From Acidovorax sp. sif1233 (lineage in GTDB: Bacteria; Pseudomonadota; Gammaproteobacteria; Burkholderiales; Burkholderiaceae_C), in the NCBI RefSeq assembly GCF_019218755.1, contig NZ_JAHUWZ010000001.1:1426001-1490000 (forward strand): a DNA stretch of 64,000 nucleotides. Reading direction: 5' to 3'. The notes under the pieces were generated by a model. That model had not been told where the DNA came from, did not search any database, and was given only the letters and a program-made list of their open reading frames with translations. This document shows positions 35,197-43,242 of this stretch, piece after piece. Both the position numbers and the translations under genes were made by a program. Within the stretch, counting starts at the first letter, position 1. The number at the start of each line of letters is the position of its first letter.

Positions 35197-35670
35197 TCAG
35201 GCGATGGGTGGCTTGATGGCCAGTGCCGCGGGAGCACTGTCAAACTGTGCGGAGGCGACGGGCAGCATGGCGCCCGTGGGGGGGTGATCCGGTGCTGGCG
35301 CCATGGGTGCATCCAGCATCGCGGAATGGCAGATCTCGCACGCCGAGCAAGCGGCGGAGTGGTGCTCGTGCGCCGCGCAGCCGGCGCTGGTGCCGTCGCA
35401 CCCGGCGGAGGCAGCGGCCAGCATGGCATGGCCAGGGGCGTGGGCAGGGTCCTGTCCGTCCCCGCCCTCTCCGGCAGGCAGGCCCTGGTGGCGCTCCTGC
35501 CCCGCCATGCCGATGGAGTCGCCGCCAGCGGCATGGTGATGGGAATGTTCCTGCGGGTGCGACGTGCCCGCGGGGAGCAGCGGCGGCAAGACGCCCGCGG
35601 CCATGGCCGTGCCGGTGAGGCCCCGGAGGACCAGCACCAACATCAACACGAAATAGAGGCCGCGACGCAT
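35197..35670 (-). CDS. Small exported His/Cys-rich protein, first gene of the copper operon
   Basis: A 157-aa protein. A strong signal sequence (MRRGLYFVLMLVLVLRGL..., ending AMAAG) is followed by a His-rich segment (EHSHHHAAGG) and a Cys cluster (AGC..AACSACEICHSAM) fit for copper binding. It resembles the small exported proteins (DUF2946/CopL-like) found before copper operons, but I cannot assign it to a family with certainty. An ATG at 35718 would add 16 residues before the signal. Confidence 0.65.
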   Translation of the reverse strand: MRRGLYFVLMLVLVLRGLTGTAMAAGVLPPLLPAGTSHPQEHSHHHAAGGDSIGMAGQERHQGLPAGEGGDGQDPAHAPGHAMLAAASAGCDGTSAGCAAHEHHSAACSACEICHSAMLDAPMAPAPDHPPTGAMLPVASAQFDSAPAALAIKPPIA

Positions 35671-35757
35671 CCACCAATGATACGGCGGCGGGCCCCAAGG
35701 TTCCCGGCGCCTTTCCATATTGTCATCTGGCGGCCATCGCCGGGCCGCCCAGGCTGC

Positions 35758-36408: not shown

Positions 36409-36718
36409 GGTGCGCAGCGACGGGCCGTGGGGGGAGGGACAACCGCCGGATTGGACCATGCAATCCCCGTGCCCGGCTTGAGCGGCGTCAAGGCTTGCGC
36501 GCGCGGGGAAGGAGGTGGGGAGGCGCTCCCGCCGGCACGGGCCCCTGGCCAGGTTTTTGCCTTGGACCAGATGTAACACCTGCAACCTCGGGCCCGGCGC
36601 GGCAGGGCGGCCCGCGGTTCCTGCGAAAATAGCTGGTTTTGCCCACTGGGGACCGGTTCCCTGATGCCCCCGCCCTCCGGGAGGGCGGCAAGAAGCGCAG
36701 TGAAATGGTTTTCCAGGG
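36409..36718. other. Divergent intergenic region before the motor-like operon
   Basis: These 310 bp lie between the YitT gene (minus) and the DUF3348 gene (plus). No gene is seen. It must carry both promoters; the clearest element is the inverted repeat at 36670-36688, 31 bp before the DUF3348 ATG. Confidence 0.6.
36670..36688. promoter_or_regulatory. Inverted repeat upstream of DUF3348
   Basis: CCGCCCTC-CGG-GAGGGCGG, a perfect 8-bp stem with a 3-nt loop, ends 30 nt before the start codon. It may be an operator or a leader hairpin controlling the motor-like operon. Confidence 0.45.
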
Positions 36719-37489
36719 ATGTATCCGCACCACAGACTCAGCAGCTCAGGACTGGTTGTCCTGCTCCAGCAATGGATGCAGGCCGATGCGGGTGCGGCCG
36801 CGCGCGCCGACGTGGCGCAGGAGCTGGGCCAATGGCTGAGCACGGTGGACGCCGTCACGCTGAGCCGTTCGCTGCATGCCATCGACGCCTTCCCGCAGGG
36901 GGAGGTGGCGGGCGCGGACGGGGCGGACCTGCAGGCACTGCAAGCGCTGTTTCAGCGCACCCAGGCAGAGCTGACGGCGCTGGCGTCGTCCAAGCCCGCA
37001 CCCGCCAAGCCGGCCCGCGAGCGCGCCGACAACACGCGCGCCCAGGCGCCGGACCCGCAGGCCGAGGCCGAGTACGGCTTTCATGCGCCGCGCTACCTGG
37101 GCCTGCAAAAGCAGATGGATGCGAAGTTGCTGGGCTTGCGCGCGCAGGTGCGCCACGGGGTGTCGCAAGGCTCCCGGGGCCTGAGGCAACTGGCGGCACT
37201 CGATGCCGTGATGGAACAACTGAGCTTTGTGCGCGAACAGCGCCTGTGGGCATCCCTGTCCGCGCACCTGGACCGGCGCCTGGTGCAATTGCGCCGCGCC
37301 CACCAGGAGCGGCTTTCGGCCCAGGGGCTGCCGGATGACCCGCAGCGCTGGCGCCTGCCCGGCGGGTGGCTGCACGCGTTCGAGCGCGACATGCAGGCGC
37401 TGCTTCTGGCCGAGATGCATGTGCGGCTGCAACCGATCCTGGGCCTGCTGGAAGCAGCCCGCAACGAGAACTTGGAACGACACGAATGA
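36719..37489 (+). CDS. DUF3348 domain-containing protein
   Basis: A 256-aa predicted cytoplasmic, mostly helical protein recognised as DUF3348. The N-terminal HRLSSSGLVVLLQQWM is followed by a Lys/Pro/Ala linker (about 93-115) and a helical C-terminal half ending in VRLQPILGLLEAARNE. No membrane helix. Its stop overlaps the start of the channel-like gene (ATGA). The family is known from the gene order DUF3348-DUF802-OmpA-DUF2894 in Burkholderiales. It probably is a cytoplasmic partner of the motor; function unknown. Confidence 0.85.
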   Translation: MYPHHRLSSSGLVVLLQQWMQADAGAAARADVAQELGQWLSTVDAVTLSRSLHAIDAFPQGEVAGADGADLQALQALFQRTQAELTALASSKPAPAKPARERADNTRAQAPDPQAEAEYGFHAPRYLGLQKQMDAKLLGLRAQVRHGVSQGSRGLRQLAALDAVMEQLSFVREQRLWASLSAHLDRRLVQLRRAHQERLSAQGLPDDPQRWRLPGGWLHAFERDMQALLLAEMHVRLQPILGLLEAARNENLERHE

Positions 37490-40167
37490 ACAAGAGTGTG
37501 ATGGCCGCCGTATTTGCCCTGGGCCTGGCGGCAGTGGGATGGGTCGGTTGGGGATTCGTGGGGTCGAGCCCGCTGGCACTGGCGATGACGGTGGTGATCG
37601 GCGCGGTCTATGTGCTGGGTGCGCTGGAGCTGGTGCAGTTTCGCCGCGGCACCGTGGCATTGGCCACGGCGCTGGCGGATGGCGCGCAGCAGCCCCTGGT
37701 GGACCTGGGCTCCTGGCTCGACCGCCTGCCCGCCGCGCTGCGCCACCCGGTGCGCCAGCGCATCGAGGGGGAGCGTGCCGTGCTCCCGGGGCCGGCCCTC
37801 ACGCCGTATCTGGTGGGACTGCTGGTCATGCTGGGCATGCTCGGGACCTTCCTCGGGATGGTGGTCACCTTCAAGGGCGCGGTGTTTGCCCTGGAAACCT
37901 CGGGCAGCCTGGAGGGCATCCGCGCCGCCCTGGCCGAGCCCATCAAGGGCCTGGGCCTGTCGTTCGGCACCTCGGTGGCGGGCGTGGCGGCCTCGGCCAT
38001 GCTGGGGCTCATGTCCGCGATCGCCCGTCGTGAGCGGCTGGTGGCGGTGCGGCAGCTCGATGCGCACATTCCCACCGTGTTCCGCCCGTTCTCTGCGAGC
38101 CATCGCCGCGAGGAGACCTTCCAGGCGCTGCAGGCCCAGGCACAGGCCATGCCGCTGATCGCCGAGCGCCTTCAGGGCCTGGTGGAAGGGCTGGAACGCC
38201 GCCACGACAAGCTGGCCGCGCAATTGCTGGCGCAGCAGAAGGATTTCCATGGTGAGGCGTCGTCGGCCTACACCCAGCTGGCGGGCGCCGTGGGCGCATC
38301 GCTGCACGACAGCCTGGGCGCCAGTGCCCGCATGGCCGGCGAAACGCTGCGGCCCGTGGTCGAGCAGGCCATGGCCGAACTGGCGCAGGAATCACAACGC
38401 GCGCACCAGCGGCTGGCCGATGCCACGGCGGCCCAGATGCAGGCGCTTTCGGCCCAGTGGGAGGGCACGGCCCGCCAGGTCTCGGACACCTGGACATCGG
38501 CCCTGGACAAGCACACGCAAGTGCAGGACCGCCTGATGGGCGGGTTCGATGGCGCGCTGCAGTCGGTGACCCAGTCGTTCGAGCAACGCTCCGCGGCGCT
38601 GCACGCGGCGCTGCAGGACACGGCGGCGCAGTCGCACGCCGCCCAGAAGGCGGCCGACGAACAGCGCCTGGCAGGGTGGACGCGGTCGATGGAGGGCATG
38701 GGCCAGACGCTGGCGGCGCAGTGGGAGCGGGCGGGCACACGCGCCGTGGAGCAGCAGCAGGGCATGCGCGACGCGCTGGAGGGCGCCACGGCGCGCCTGG
38801 ACCAGTCCCTGCTAGCGGCCACCCAGGCTTTCGAGCAGCGCTCCACGGCCCTGGTCGCGTCGCTGCAGGACACGGTGGCGCACACCCACGCGGCCCAGGC
38901 AGCGGCCGACGAGCAGCGCATCGCCGGCTGGCGCGCATCGATGGAAGACACGGCCCGCTCACTCGCCGCCCAATGGGAGCGCGCGGGCGAGCAGGCCGCA
39001 GCCCAGCAGCGGGGCGTGGCGCAGGCGCTCGCAGGTGCTGGCGCGCAGCTGGGCGAGTCGCTGCAATCGGCCACGCAATCGTTCGACCAGCGCTCCAGCG
39101 CGCTGCTGTCGTCGTTGCAGGACACGGTGGCGCAGTCCCACACGGCCCAGATGTCGGCCGACCAGGCGCGCCTGGCCGGCTGGAACGCGTCCATGGAGGG
39201 TATTGCGCAGTCGCTGACGGCCGAATGGCAACGCGTGAGCACCCAGACGCTGGAGCGCCAGCAGGCCGTGTGCGATGCCCTCGAGACCGCGGTGACCGGG
39301 CTCACCGGCCGCATGGGCGAGCAGGTGGCCAAGACCCTGGACGGCACCGCGCGCCTGATGGACCAGTCCGAAGCCTTGCTGCGCACCCGCACCGACGCGG
39401 AGGCCCAGTGGCTGCAGGCGCAGGGCGACCGCATGGATGCGCTGGCAGGCGTGTGGCGCACCGAGCTGGCGGCGCTGCGCGATGCCGAGGCTGAGCGCGG
39501 GCGTGCGGCGGTCGACCGCCTGGAGGCCTTGCAGGAGGCCGTGGCCCAGCACCTGGCCACGCTGGGGTCGGCGCTGGAAGCACCGCTCACGCGCCTGCTG
39601 CAGACGGCGTCCGACGTGCCGCAAGCGGCTGCGGAGGTCATCGCCCAGCTGCGCCATGAGATGACGCAGCTGAGCGAGCGCGACAACGTGGCGCTGGCCG
39701 AGCGCACGGCCATGATGGAGCAGCTGGGTACGCTGCTCCAGTCCGTCAACGAGGCCGCTGTAGAGCAGCGCGGTGCCATCGAATCCCTGGTGGGCACGGC
39801 CGCTTCGGTGCTGGAGCAGGCGGCATCGCAGTTTGCACAGGCGCTGGACAGCCAGGTCGGCAAGGCGGACGAAGCGGCCACCCACGTGGCCGCCAGCGCG
39901 GTGGAGCTGTCGAGCCTGGGCGAGGCCTTTGGCCACGGCGTGGGGCTGTTCACCGCCAGCAACGAAAAGCTCATGGACAGCCTGCAGCGCATCGAAGGCG
40001 CCATCGGCCAGTCCCTGTCGCGCAGTGACGAGCAACTGGCCTACTACGTGGCGCAGGCACGCGAAGTGATCGACCTGAGCATCGCGTCGCAGCAGGGCAT
40101 TGTGGAAGACCTGCGCCGGCTCAAGGGCAGGGCGGTGGCCGCTGCCGAACCGGAGGTGGCCGGATGA
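37486..40167 (+). CDS. DUF802 protein: MotA/ExbB/ZorA-like channel with long coiled-coil tail
   Basis: An 893-aa protein. Two N-terminal membrane helices (about 5-25, 30-50) precede a short cytoplasmic part, then two more helices at about 105-128 (VGLLVMLGMLGTFLGMVV) and 157-180 (LGLSFGTSVAGVAASAMLGL). These last two carry the glycine- and small-residue-rich pattern of TM3/TM4 of proton-channel proteins (MotA, TolQ, ExbB, ZorA). The remaining about 700 residues are an almost uninterrupted Ala/Gln/Glu-rich helical tail with three tandem 84-residue repeats (362-613). Topology plus tail match ZorA of Zorya. The next gene encodes the matching MotB/ZorB-like partner. Overlaps both neighbours by four bases. 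Confidence 0.85.
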   Translation: MNKSVMAAVFALGLAAVGWVGWGFVGSSPLALAMTVVIGAVYVLGALELVQFRRGTVALATALADGAQQPLVDLGSWLDRLPAALRHPVRQRIEGERAVLPGPALTPYLVGLLVMLGMLGTFLGMVVTFKGAVFALETSGSLEGIRAALAEPIKGLGLSFGTSVAGVAASAMLGLMSAIARRERLVAVRQLDAHIPTVFRPFSASHRREETFQALQAQAQAMPLIAERLQGLVEGLERRHDKLAAQLLAQQKDFHGEASSAYTQLAGAVGASLHDSLGASARMAGETLRPVVEQAMAELAQESQRAHQRLADATAAQMQALSAQWEGTARQVSDTWTSALDKHTQVQDRLMGGFDGALQSVTQSFEQRSAALHAALQDTAAQSHAAQKAADEQRLAGWTRSMEGMGQTLAAQWERAGTRAVEQQQGMRDALEGATARLDQSLLAATQAFEQRSTALVASLQDTVAHTHAAQAAADEQRIAGWRASMEDTARSLAAQWERAGEQAAAQQRGVAQALAGAGAQLGESLQSATQSFDQRSSALLSSLQDTVAQSHTAQMSADQARLAGWNASMEGIAQSLTAEWQRVSTQTLERQQAVCDALETAVTGLTGRMGEQVAKTLDGTARLMDQSEALLRTRTDAEAQWLQAQGDRMDALAGVWRTELAALRDAEAERGRAAVDRLEALQEAVAQHLATLGSALEAPLTRLLQTASDVPQAAAEVIAQLRHEMTQLSERDNVALAERTAMMEQLGTLLQSVNEAAVEQRGAIESLVGTAASVLEQAASQFAQALDSQVGKADEAATHVAASAVELSSLGEAFGHGVGLFTASNEKLMDSLQRIEGAIGQSLSRSDEQLAYYVAQAREVIDLSIASQQGIVEDLRRLKGRAVAAAEPEVAG
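38569..39324 (+). repeat. Three tandem 252-bp (84-residue) repeats in the DUF802 gene
   Basis: The copies are 38569-38820, 38821-39072 and 39073-39324, with no spacer. Each starts TQ(S/A)F(E/D)QRS.AL and contains SLQDT.A..H.AQ..AD..R.AGW..SME followed by L.A.W.R. The third is the most diverged. Part of a further unit is visible just before (ALSAQWEGTARQV, with a 4-residue length difference). Because 84 is 12 heptads, copy number can change without breaking coiled-coil phase. Confidence 0.9.
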
Positions 40168-40823
40168 TGGGCCTGGACGACGCCCTCGACGAGGGGACCG
40201 AGCAGACCGCGCCGGTATGGGCCGTGTTCGGCGATCTCATGGCCGGCCTGCTGGGCGCCTTCGTGCTGATCCTGGTGGGCGTGCTGGTGGTACAGATCGA
40301 TCTGGTGGCCAGCCTCAGGCAGGAGGTGGAAAAGCGCCAGCAGGAAGAGCAGCGCCGCATGGCCCTGGAGAAGGCGCTGGCCATCCCCTTGGCCAGCGGC
40401 CGTGTGACGGTGAATGACGGCCGCATCGGGATCAGCGGCAGCGTGCTGTTCGCCACGGGCTCCGACGAGTTGCGGCCCGAAGGCCGCCAGCTTCTCAGAA
40501 GCCTCGTGCAGCCCCTGCAGGTGTACCTGCGCGAACGCGACGAGATGCTGATGGTGAGCGGGTTCACCGACAACACCACACTGCTGCGCGGCAGCCAGCA
40601 GCGCTTTGCCGACAACCTCGAGCTGTCCGCCCAGCGGGCGCTGACGGTCGCGCGGGCGCTGATCGACGAAGGCATGCCGTCGTCGCAGGTGTTCGCCGCA
40701 GCGTTCGGCGCGGAGCAGCCGGTGGCCTCCAACGCGGATGAAAAAGGCCGCGCGCAGAACCGCCGCGTGGAAATGGCTCCCGTGCCCAAGGCATCGGGTG
40801 CAAAGCCTGCGCGGCATGAGTGA
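40164..40823 (+). CDS. OmpA-domain protein, MotB/ZorB-like
   Basis: A 219-aa protein. A short cytoplasmic N terminus is followed by one membrane helix (about 19-46, WAVFGDLMAGLLGAFVLILV) bearing Asp24. This is the position and context (F.DLM..L...F) of the proton-carrying aspartate of MotB and ZorB. A coiled-coil spacer (50-75) leads to an OmpA/MotB peptidoglycan-binding domain: SVLFATGSDELRPEG, SGFTDN, NLELSAQRALTVARAL and AQNRRVEM. It should pair with the DUF802 protein as an ion-driven stator anchored to the cell wall. The start overlaps the DUF802 stop (ATGA) and its end overlaps the DUF2894 start by 8 nt. Confidence 0.92.
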   Translation: MMGLDDALDEGTEQTAPVWAVFGDLMAGLLGAFVLILVGVLVVQIDLVASLRQEVEKRQQEEQRRMALEKALAIPLASGRVTVNDGRIGISGSVLFATGSDELRPEGRQLLRSLVQPLQVYLRERDEMLMVSGFTDNTTLLRGSQQRFADNLELSAQRALTVARALIDEGMPSSQVFAAAFGAEQPVASNADEKGRAQNRRVEMAPVPKASGAKPARHE

Positions 40824-41409
40824 ACCCACGCTCGAATCCCTGCGCGCCGAGGGCGCGGACCGCCACGACCCCGTGCGCTACCGCTACCTGGAGGTGCTGG
40901 CCGCGCGCCTGCCCGCACAGCCCCCCGCGGTGCAGCAGATACTGGAACAGCGGCTGCGGCGGGCCGTTGGGGCCTATGCGGACGGAGCCCGCGCGGCCGG
41001 CGGGCCGGCCCCCGGCGCGGTCGAGCCACCGGCGGCATCACCCCTGGCCCGGCTCAACCGCGACCTGGATGCACGGGCGCAGGCCGATGCGGAACGGGTG
41101 CGCATCGAAGGCGGTGCCAGCGCGTCGGACATGAAGAGCGTGCGCCAGTTCGGCGAGGTGTGGTCCCGCATTGCCGCGGAGCAGCAGGTGGTGCAGGCGC
41201 TGGACCGTGGACCGGAGAACGCGGGGCCGCTCAACCCGCACAAGCTCATGCTGCGGTCGCTCAGCCTGATGCGGGGCCTCTCGCCCGACTACCTGCGGCG
41301 CTTCCTGTCGCAGATGGACTCGCTCCTGTGGCTGGAACAGGCGAATGCAGCACGCCCGAGAAACCTGGGCCCCGCAGCCCGCGGGGGGCGAAGCCGGCCC
41401 AGGGCATAA
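40816..41409 (+). CDS. DUF2894 domain-containing protein
   Basis: A 197-aa protein recognised as DUF2894 by composition and by the conserved C-terminal region GPLNPHKLMLRSLSLMRGLSPDYLRRFLSQMDSLLWLEQ. The N-terminal half begins TLESLRAEGADRHDPVRYRYLEVLAARL. It is soluble, with an Ala/Pro/Gly linker around 60-75 and a basic tail. The ATG at 40816 overlaps the OmpA gene. It closes the four-gene operon; function unknown, probably another cytoplasmic component. Confidence 0.87.
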   Translation: MSEPTLESLRAEGADRHDPVRYRYLEVLAARLPAQPPAVQQILEQRLRRAVGAYADGARAAGGPAPGAVEPPAASPLARLNRDLDARAQADAERVRIEGGASASDMKSVRQFGEVWSRIAAEQQVVQALDRGPENAGPLNPHKLMLRSLSLMRGLSPDYLRRFLSQMDSLLWLEQANAARPRNLGPAARGGRSRPRA

Positions 41410-41499
41410 GAAGTCCCTGTCGAATCCGGCGGGCCTGCCCAGGGCGGGCCAGGCGCCGCACAGGCCGCCCCAGGGTTGCCTGGCCTGCGGCCATGCCCC

Positions 41500-41775
41500 T
41501 CACTGGGGCTTGGCCGCGATGTGGCGTTGCAGCAGCGCGTTGGACTGGTCGAGTGCCTCGGCGGTGTCGCTCAATTGCTGCTCGAGCTGATCCGTGCGCT
41601 CCACCGCCGCCTGCAGGTCCCCTTGCAGGGCGTCGGTGGGAATTTGTGTCGTGAGCACCGCGTGCACGACATCGAGCTCGTTGGCCGTGGCCTTGATCTG
41701 CTCGGCCGTTTCCAGGTTGCGGTTCAGTACCTCATCGATCTCGGAGGGCTGGGGCTGCTTCGTTGCGCTGGGCAT
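41500..41775 (-). CDS. Small coiled-coil hypothetical protein
   Basis: A 91-aa acidic, helical protein I do not recognise. Heptad-like sequence DLQAAVERTDQLEQQLSDTAEALDQSNALLQRH fills the C-terminal half, and no signal peptide is present. It is convergent with the motor-like operon and divergent from the receiver gene at 41903. The ATG at 41775 was chosen for its compact product; an ATG 57 nt upstream would add 19 basic residues. Confidence 0.65.
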   Translation of the reverse strand: MPSATKQPQPSEIDEVLNRNLETAEQIKATANELDVVHAVLTTQIPTDALQGDLQAAVERTDQLEQQLSDTAEALDQSNALLQRHIAAKPQ

Positions 41776-41902
41776 AGGTAAGTCTCGCTGAGTATGAAGA
41801 ATCAACTTCTGCCATCGGGGACGCGGCGCCATCGCCTACAGGCCGGGAGGTCGGATCAGGCGACATTGTAGGCAGCATCACAACAGAAAACGCAGCTTCC
41901 AG

Positions 41903-42349
41903 ATGCCCCTCAACACCATCCTTGTCGAAGACAGCAAAACCATCCAGGAAACTCTGGTGCCCGCGCTGGAGGAACTGGCGGACGCGCGCGTCCTCGCCAT
42001 CGCCGAAACCGCCAGCGACGCCACGGAGGCCGTCGCGCACTGGCGGGAAGACTGGCAGCTCATGGTGGTGGACCTGTTCCTGCGCGAAGGCTCCGGGATC
42101 GAGGTGCTGCAGGCCCTGCAGCGCGGGGACCGGCTGCGCGCAACGCCTGGCGCACGGCAGGGCAGGCCCGGACAGCATGTCTACGTGTTGTCCAACTATG
42201 CGACGGCGGACATGCGCCGCCGGTGCGAGGAGTTGGGCGCCGATGGGGTGTTCGACAAGTCCACCGAGCTGGACGCCTTTTTCGAGCGTTGCAGCGAGCT
42301 GCCGCGCCGCGCAGGCACCGGCAGTTCCGCCGCAGCGGATCGCCGGTAG
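41903..42349 (+). CDS. Stand-alone response-regulator receiver protein
   Basis: A 148-aa single-domain receiver. The acidic pair is Glu9/Asp10, the phosphoacceptor is Asp57 in QLMVVDLFL, the switch residue lies in VYVLSNYA, and the conserved Lys is in GVFDKS. The last about 20 residues are a disordered tail and there is no output domain. No histidine kinase is adjacent. It may act through protein contacts, as CheY-like proteins do. Confidence 0.88.
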   Translation: MPLNTILVEDSKTIQETLVPALEELADARVLAIAETASDATEAVAHWREDWQLMVVDLFLREGSGIEVLQALQRGDRLRATPGARQGRPGQHVYVLSNYATADMRRRCEELGADGVFDKSTELDAFFERCSELPRRAGTGSSAAADRR

Positions 42350-42357
42350 CCCCCGGG

Positions 42358-43242
42358 CTACCGGACGGCCGGGCCGGGACGGCTGGCTGTGCCATCCTCC
42401 AGCGCCCGTTCGATGAGCGCAGCCACCGCGGGGTCCGGTGCCATGGGCCGGAAGGCGCTGACGTGCGCGCGTCCGATGTTCCCGGCGGGCAGGCGGGCCA
42501 GCAGGTGGCCCAGTGGTACCAGCGCGAGCCGCGCCATCTGGCCGGCGGCCTCGTGCGAATCCCGCAGCTGCAGCGCGTAGCGCAGCATCGCGCAGTGCGA
42601 TCTCCAGTGCAGGGGCAGGGAAGACTGGCCCAGCACATGCGCTGCCTCCAGCCACCGCCAGCGCACCGCCGGGGGGGCCTCCGGCTGGCCCGCAAAACCG
42701 GCGAGCAGATGCTCGAACGCTCGGCGTTTGTGTTGCGCACAGGAGGGCGCTGCATGTTCTGCCGCCCGCAGCCCCGCGTGCTGTTCCGCCAGCTTGCGCC
42801 AGCGGCGCTGGCGATGCCGGTAGAACACCTGGGCGAATGCCGTGCTCAACGGCGTCATCAGCCAGGGCAGGTGGCGGGCCACGACCTTCACGTCGTCGGT
42901 GTACAGGGTCGTGCCGTCCGGCAGGGGCTCGAGCGTGATGCGGTGGTCCCAGCGGCGCATGAGCAGGCCGTCGCCGTTGTCGCGCAGCGTGGGCCAGCCG
43001 CCAGCCTGCGGTGGCGGCTCGATGGAAATGCGCACGGTCTGGGGGCCCATGGGCAGCACGCCCAGCAGCCGCATGTCCAGCGCGAACTCGCCCTGTTCCC
43101 AGTGCGCGGGCCATCGCGCGCCTTGCACGGGCCGGAACCGCATGAGGGGCGCGGTGATGTGGCGAAAGACGGCGGTGCTTTGCAGCTGCGTGGCCACCCA
43201 CTCGGGCGGCGCGTTCAAGCGGGTGGACAGGTGCACGCGCAT
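42358..43242 (-). CDS. SRPBCC-like domain fused to DUF3703
   Basis: A 294-aa protein with two parts. Residues 1-150 look like a START/SRPBCC-type ligand-binding fold (MRVHLSTRLNAPPEWVATQLQST, DHRITLEPLPDGTTLYTDDV). Residues about 185-285 are DUF3703 (WLEAAHVLGQSS..LHWRSHCAMLRYAL, LLARLPAGNIGRAHVSAFRPM). DUF3703 is usually a small separate protein near metal-efflux genes. Here it is a C-terminal fusion, and the gene follows the CDF exporter by 3 bp in the same operon. Function unknown; a link to cadmium/lead/zinc handling is inferred. Confidence 0.8.
   Translation of the reverse strand: MRVHLSTRLNAPPEWVATQLQSTAVFRHITAPLMRFRPVQGARWPAHWEQGEFALDMRLLGVLPMGPQTVRISIEPPPQAGGWPTLRDNGDGLLMRRWDHRITLEPLPDGTTLYTDDVKVVARHLPWLMTPLSTAFAQVFYRHRQRRWRKLAEQHAGLRAAEHAAPSCAQHKRRAFEHLLAGFAGQPEAPPAVRWRWLEAAHVLGQSSLPLHWRSHCAMLRYALQLRDSHEAAGQMARLALVPLGHLLARLPAGNIGRAHVSAFRPMAPDPAVAALIERALEDGTASRPGPAVR

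What the first reader, a model, noticed from the sequence alone, without database searches (positions are those of the whole stretch)
36719..41409. Four-gene operon for a Zorya-like, ion-driven membrane motor of unknown function
The DUF802 protein has the four-helix layout and TM3/TM4 small-residue pattern of MotA/ExbB/ZorA channels. It also has a cytoplasmic tail of about 700 residues. The next gene has one membrane helix with an Asp (Asp24, FGDLM context) and an OmpA/MotB peptidoglycan-binding domain. That is the stator pair of MotAB, and the long tail is like ZorA in Zorya anti-phage systems. DUF3348 and DUF2894 flank the pair with overlapping genes in place of ZorC, ZorD or ZorE. The order is conserved in Burkholderiales from what I know of these families, so this may be a core motor (cell-wall, envelope or signalling) or an unrecognised defence-type machine.
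Basis: partly seen in the sequence, partly recalled or inferred. Interest (0 to 1): 0.85.

Follow-up and report, generated by a model that had tools for sequence, protein, structure and literature searches.

The report
Zorya type III anti-phage motor operon
The four genes are an intact Zorya type III system, an ion-driven membrane motor already reported to protect bacteria against phages, so the motor was read correctly but it is not an unrecognised machine; what its two partner proteins do is still unknown.

Summary
In detail: four overlapping, intact genes at 36719-41409 encode DUF3348, a MotA-like protein with a long tail (DUF802), a MotB-like OmpA protein and DUF2894. The reading "Zorya-like but unrecognised" is half right. 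This is Zorya type III, named in 2021 from exactly this gene set, with phage protection reported for a relative. All four proteins hit the PADLOC type III models (best E 9e-56 to 1e-265). Asp24 of ZorB and the ZorA Thr/Ser ring are conserved in about 120 relatives. Every relative not cut by a contig end keeps the four-gene order.

New here: (1) the ZorA tail is built of exact 84-residue repeats, one to five copies in Acidovorax, so tail length changes in fixed steps with the hydrophobic stripe kept in phase; (2) 86% of good Acidovorax genomes carry one copy, but at six or more chromosomal settings, and a clean empty site is visible, so it moves and is lost as a unit; (3) the two partner proteins are helical with no solved relative or nuclease fold, so they probably do not copy the type I/II effectors; (4) those partners diverge fastest. 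Ordinary member; the type III mechanism is the open question.

The parts
36719..37489 (+). DUF3348 protein, 256 aa (ZorF in Payne 2021; labelled ZorG3 in PADLOC-DB v2). All-helical, no predicted membrane helix, no known catalytic fold.
   Evidence: Pfam PF11828 1.3e-46; PADLOC PDLC00658 8.9e-56; AlphaFold2 pLDDT 84, pTM 0.80, eight helices; no PDB fold match better than E 0.77
37486..40167 (+). ZorA type III, 893 aa: membrane motor part (about residues 1-200), long cytoplasmic helical tail
   Evidence: PADLOC ZorA3 1.2e-265; profile hits solved ZorA 8vvn_C 2e-5; Thr121 (37846-37848) and Ser163 (37972-37974) invariant in the motor alignment
38515..39261 (+). three tandem 84-residue tail repeats (the DUF802 unit); 252-bp tandem repeat in the DNA
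   Evidence: units at residues 344-424, 425-508, 509-592; 50-55% identical to each other; TRF period 252 at 38555-39197
39583..40125 (+). conserved distal part of the ZorA tail (about residues 700-880), proposed docking end
   Evidence: conservation returns after the variable repeat region; docking role is inference
40164..40823 (+). ZorB type III, 219 aa: one membrane helix plus OmpA/MotB peptidoglycan-binding domain (40446-40763)
   Evidence: PADLOC ZorB3 9.1e-108; OmpA 5.5e-19; solved ZorB 8vvn_B, 8qyd_F
40233..40235 (+). codon of Asp24, the ion-carrying aspartate
   Evidence: invariant in 41/41 and 80/80 homologues; aligns with the Asp of Shewanella ZorB, reported as D24 in PMC11890865
40816..41409 (+). 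DUF2894 protein, 197 aa (ZorG in Payne 2021; labelled ZorF3 in PADLOC-DB v2). Helical, family mean pI 10.3
   Evidence: Pfam PF11445 2.6e-51; PADLOC PDLC00652 4.8e-60; AlphaFold2 pLDDT 76, pTM 0.37; no PDB fold match; pI
36493..42398 (.). segment missing from the same chromosomal site in relatives (empty site of about 150 bp between YitT and DUF3703 genes): operon plus two extra genes
   Evidence: blastn of empty sites L224, L225, L227, L226 against the window; gene-by-gene comparison

Best explanation
The operon is a Zorya type III phage-defence system. Five ZorA and two ZorB form an inner-membrane ion-driven motor. ZorB anchors in or senses peptidoglycan through its OmpA domain. When a phage disturbs the cell wall, ZorB engages, ions pass through the Asp24/Thr121/Ser163 path, and the ZorA ring turns or shifts a pentameric helical rod of up to about 100 nm (675 residues at 1.5 A) that reaches into the cytoplasm. 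The rod contains a stack of 84-residue units, so its reach is set in fixed steps. Its conserved far end most likely holds or releases DUF3348 and DUF2894, the type III replacements for ZorCD and ZorE. Because neither looks like a nuclease, they probably act as helical adaptors or as nucleic-acid- or membrane-binding effectors, not as a recognisable DNA-cutting enzyme. Shown here: gene set, motor residues, tail repeats, lack of a known fold, movement as a unit. Shown by others: phage protection by a type III relative, 5:2 assembly and rod in types I/II. Inferred: 5:2 assembly in this system, ion flow, trigger, docking and effector action.
For: All four proteins match type III models. The order DUF3348-ZorA-ZorB-DUF2894 holds in 40/40 fetched loci (in one, the DUF3348 gene was missed by blast but found by its Pfam model) and in 72/72 named loci not cut by a contig end. 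Asp24 and the ZorA Thr/Ser are invariant or nearly so and align with solved ZorAB. Type III from Stenotrophomonas nitritireducens lowers phage plaquing in E. coli. Types I/II form 5:2 motors with a cytoplasmic rod needed for defence. Patchy in the family, moves between sites, transferred between genera. The two partner proteins are the fastest-changing parts (about 60% mean identity within the genus, against 88.7% for ZorB), as expected of parts facing phage or a changing target.
Against: No phage experiment exists for this locus or, in the literature held here, any Acidovorax copy. The published type III test used induced plasmid expression in E. coli. The 86% prevalence in the genus, the single copy and the lack of clear defence-gene neighbours are unusual for a defence system. 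The 5:2 assembly of type III is not shown. The DUF2894 model is of low confidence, so a hidden enzyme fold is not excluded.
Confidence: 0.72

Rival explanations
1. A housekeeping envelope motor of beta-proteobacteria (like Tol-Pal or MotAB), whose phage effect in E. coli is a by-product of overexpressing an ion channel.
For: Present once in 37/43 good genomes of the genus; common in two other genera sampled (9/12 and 6/11); ZorAB of 19 Acidovorax form one clade and follow rpoB distances (r 0.44, p 0.001); flanks carry no other clear defence genes; absent from phages, and on plasmid records only of 366 kb or more.
Against: Cleanly absent in complete relatives, present in only 30% of family and 3% of class genomes; at least six chromosomal settings in one genus; almost no rpoB agreement at family level (r 0.14) and near relatives with foreign copies; partner proteins diverge much faster than neighbouring genes.
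Confidence: 0.15
2. A type III Zorya whose DUF3348 or DUF2894 protein is a hidden nuclease, so that it works exactly like types I/II (recruiting a DNA-damaging enzyme to the rod).
For: PMC11890865 proposes one shared mechanism of nuclease recruitment for all subtypes. The DUF2894 family is strongly basic (mean pI 10.3).
Against: No sequence or fold match to any nuclease. Invariant columns are mostly hydrophobic, Gly, Pro or Arg, with no Asp/Glu/His/Lys cluster typical of nucleases.
Confidence: 0.1
3. A decayed or recently acquired, non-functional copy.
For: One relative (L061) has a frameshifted ZorA tail, so decay may happen.
Against: All four window genes are intact with the motor residues kept; the same-species genome has 99-100% identical proteins.
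Confidence: 0.03

Closest known systems
Zorya type III (Payne et al. 2021, PMC8565338; DUF3348 + ZorA + ZorB + DUF2894)
   Same: Same four families, same flanking arrangement; all four proteins hit the PADLOC type III models.
   Different: No difference in kind. The tail has three 84-residue repeats where relatives have one to five.
Zorya type I (Shewanella ZorAB, PDB 8VVN; E. coli 8QYD)
   Same: ZorA motor core, Thr/Ser ring, ZorB helix with Asp and OmpA domain, long tail.
   Different: No ZorC or ZorD (helicase/nuclease); DUF3348 and DUF2894 instead. PADLOC ZorA1 only 4e-15 against 1e-265 for ZorA3.
Zorya type II
   Same: ZorA/ZorB core (ZorA2 6e-7, ZorB2 3e-10).
   Different: No ZorE HNH nickase; longer tail.
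MotAB / ExbBD / TolQR stator family
   Same: A subunit with several membrane helices, one-helix B subunit with the ion-carrying Asp, peptidoglycan-binding domain as in MotB.
   Different: No MotA_ExbB Pfam hit and no MotA/ExbB/TolQ chain found by the motor profile; about 690-residue tail; DUF3348 and DUF2894 partners, which I do not know from flagellar, Ton or Tol loci (own knowledge).

Membership tests
Zorya type III | ZorA and ZorB flanked by DUF3348 and DUF2894 genes | tested here: met
Zorya type III | gene set and order conserved across relatives | tested here: met
   72/72 named loci not cut by contig ends; 40 fetched loci
Zorya type III | protects against phages | not testable with these tools
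   reported for S. nitritireducens type III in E. coli; not for this locus
Zorya (all types) | ion-carrying Asp in the ZorB helix and polar Thr/Ser in ZorA helices 3 and 4 | tested here: met
Zorya (all types) | OmpA/MotB peptidoglycan-binding domain in ZorB | tested here: met
   PF00691 5.5e-19, residues 95-200
Zorya (all types) | long helical cytoplasmic ZorA tail | tested here: met
   about 690 residues, hydrophobic period 3.66, power 23.7 against a shuffle maximum of 11.4; pentamer not shown
Zorya (all types) | 5:2 ZorA:ZorB assembly | not testable with these tools
   only single chains can be predicted here; shown for types I/II
Zorya type I | zorC and zorD genes | tested here: not met
   no ZorC/ZorD hit among the operon proteins; neighbouring genes are efflux, YitT, response regulator, MerR and MlaE
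Zorya type II | zorE (HNH nickase) gene | tested here: not met
   no ZorE or HNH hit in the operon or its neighbours
MotAB/ExbBD/TolQR proper | MotA/TolQ/ExbB family signature in the A subunit | tested here: not met
   no MotA_ExbB Pfam hit; only solved ZorA found by the motor profile

The most novel reading that the evidence does not exclude
Type III is a nuclease-free Zorya: the same ion motor turns a rod whose length is set by whole 84-residue units, and its far end drives two helical proteins that stop phage by a way unlike ZorCD or ZorE (for example holding, threading or blocking incoming DNA, or disturbing the membrane). Rod length would be a selectable setting of the machine, changed in steps by unequal recombination of a 252-bp repeat.
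Probability: 0.35. Interest if true: 0.65.

Novelty: already known. Interest (0 to 1): 0.33.

Why it matters
Zorya type III is one of the more numerous Zorya types in genomes (6,401 instances against 7,742 of types I and II together in the 2021 count) yet has no worked-out mechanism that I could find. The data here make two points testable: that its effectors are not recognisable nucleases, and that natural strains already carry rods of one to five repeat units, a ready length series to ask what the rod does. The clean empty sites and near-fixation in Acidovorax also give a natural comparison of strains with and without it.

Tried and rejected
(1) 'Unrecognised system': rejected by the literature and PADLOC models. 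(2) A conserved fifth gene (missing nuclease) near the operon: none recurs across 40 loci. The response regulator and small coiled-coil-like gene downstream occur only in some genomes that use the same site. (3) Defence-island neighbourhood: 105 flanking proteins of 20 loci gave only four with any hit at 1e-20, to mad3 and RtcR-like models that I take as generic kinase/regulator matches. (4) Fold search for DUF3348 and DUF2894: nothing. A weak sequence match of DUF2894 to PscE (E 0.006) was judged a helical-hairpin chance match. (5) The first rpoB tree was spoilt by antisense ORFs picked as the longest; redone. (6) ZorA type I prevalence in the family with NF033914 as a control: no hit over the curated cut-off, so uninformative. 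(8) The main structure paper on type I (PMC11946911) is not held.

Full report
WHAT IS THERE. The window (from an Acidovorax genome; named relatives, genus sample) holds four overlapping genes on the + strand at 36719-41409: DUF3348 (256 aa), an 893-aa membrane protein with DUF802 repeats, a 219-aa OmpA-domain protein with one membrane helix, and DUF2894 (197 aa). All four frames are intact.

WHAT IT IS. PADLOC models name all four: ZorA3 1.2e-265, ZorB3 9.1e-108, DUF3348 8.9e-56, DUF2894 4.8e-60. Payne et al. 2021 (PMC8565338) defined Zorya type III from Zorya motor-gene pairs flanked by DUF3348 and DUF2894, counted 6,401 of them, and reported that the three new subtypes tested, among them the Stenotrophomonas nitritireducens type III copy, each significantly lowered plaquing of at least one phage in E. 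coli. [quoted passage not shown] The locus is therefore a member of a named system. The paper texts call DUF3348 ZorF and DUF2894 ZorG; PADLOC-DB v2 has the two labels the other way round, so Pfam names are safer.

MOTOR PARTS. The profile of the ZorA motor part finds one solved chain, Shewanella ZorA (8vvn_C, E 2e-5), and places Thr121 and Ser163 on its Thr and Ser in helices 3 and 4. ZorB finds Shewanella and E. coli ZorB as well as MotB chains, and its N-terminal part alone finds Shewanella ZorB with the Asp aligned; that Asp is D24 in the paper too. In 41 homologues Asp24 is invariant; all 80 named homologues keep it. The Thr and Ser are invariant in the 27-sequence motor alignment and kept in nearly all named loci; in three of the hits one or both search patterns were not found. 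Pfam's MotA_ExbB model does not hit, so by sequence this is ZorA and not MotA, ExbB or TolQ.

TAIL. Conservation in ZorA falls in two blocks, about residues 1-290 and 700-880, with a variable middle. The middle of the window protein is a tandem repeat of exactly 84 residues (252 bp), three copies 50-55% identical to each other. Within Acidovorax the number of units is one to five, and protein length follows: 724, 807-812, 889-901, 978-979 and 1057 residues, leaving aside the frameshifted L061. Outside the genus units are more diverged and harder to count. The hydrophobic pattern of the whole tail has a period of 3.66 residues (power 23.7; maximum of 2,000 shuffles 11.4), and most homologues peak at 3.65-3.66, the rest at 3.56-3.67. 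84 residues are 23 such periods (3.652), so adding or removing a unit keeps the stripe in phase. This period is close to 11/3, the pattern of a straight or slightly right-handed helical bundle (general knowledge). The 2025 paper says that component size is well conserved within each Zorya family it studied (types I and II); here the type III rod varies strongly in fixed steps. I found no earlier mention of this in the held literature, which lacks the main type I structure paper.

PARTNER PROTEINS. AlphaFold2 gives DUF3348 a confident all-helical fold (pLDDT 84, pTM 0.80) and DUF2894 a less certain helical one (75.7, 0.37). Neither matches any solved structure by fold (best E 0.77 and 3.3) or convincingly by profile. 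Their invariant columns contain no cluster of acidic or His residues. The DUF2894 family is basic (mean pI 10.3). No fifth gene recurs nearby. So the type I/II theme, in which the motor recruits a nuclease, has no obvious counterpart in type III.

SPREAD. The operon is all or nothing: 40/40 fetched loci (in one the DUF3348 gene was missed by blast but found by its Pfam model) and 72/72 named loci not cut by a contig end keep the order DUF3348-ZorA-ZorB-DUF2894. DUF3348 is found in 37 of 43 good genomes of the genus, 45 of 149 in the family, 8 of 273 in the class, and in 9/12 and 6/11 of two further genera chosen because they contain it. No phage record carries it, and only 27 of 72,556 plasmid records do, all of 366 kb or more.

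MOVEMENT. Within Acidovorax at least six chromosomal settings occur (six changes of site on either tree). At the window's site, YitT and MlaE genes flank the operon in twelve or more genomes, but they lie within about 0.3-2.4 kb of each other, without the operon, in genomes that carry it elsewhere and in four genomes that lack it. DNA comparison puts the inserted segment at about 36493-42398, in place of a gap of about 150 bp. ZorAB of 19 Acidovorax genomes form one clade and track rpoB (r 0.44, p 0.001), but at family level the agreement almost vanishes (r 0.14, p 0.04), and near neighbours of Acidovorax by rpoB carry distant copies. The neighbours of 20 family loci are mostly not defence genes. 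The picture is a module that is kept often, lost sometimes, relocated, and exchanged between genera.

RATES. Within the genus mean identity is 60.5% for DUF3348, 59.8% for DUF2894, 78.8% for the ZorA motor, 88.7% for ZorB, 88% for the neighbouring MlaE and 97.8% for rpoB. The partner proteins change fastest, which fits target-facing parts but is not proof.

VERDICT. Observation confirmed; interpretation half right; system already known. The 84-residue step rod, the lack of a nuclease-like partner and the clean empty sites are the useful additions. Defence is the best reading (0.72 including the outline of the mechanism). A core envelope motor is a live but weaker rival.

Noticed in passing
window 38515-39261: The ZorA tail contains an exact 84-residue (252-bp) tandem repeat; Acidovorax relatives have one to five units, giving stepwise tail lengths with the hydrophobic stripe kept in phase.
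   Followed up: yes
window 36493-42398: The insert at this site includes, besides the operon, a 110-aa coiled-coil-like gene (41503-41832, -) and a response regulator (41903-42349, +); both occur only in part of the genomes that have the operon at this site and in none of the other sites tested.
   Followed up: partly
L061 about 13450: In one relative (G171) the ZorA tail frame is broken near its end; pseudogene or assembly error.
   Followed up: partly
PADLOC-DB v2 models PDLC00652-00658: The labels ZorF and ZorG are swapped relative to the text of the paper that named them (paper: ZorF = DUF3348, ZorG = DUF2894).
   Followed up: no
window 35200-35718: A 173-aa gene between an outer-membrane efflux protein and YitT has no Pfam family and is mostly 32-62% identical to the window copy in other species of the genus although its neighbours are conserved.
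   Followed up: no
L080, L092, L089 (genomes G004, G005, G080): By rpoB these three sit in or next to Acidovorax but carry type III operons from a distant clade, pointing to transfer between genera.
   Followed up: partly
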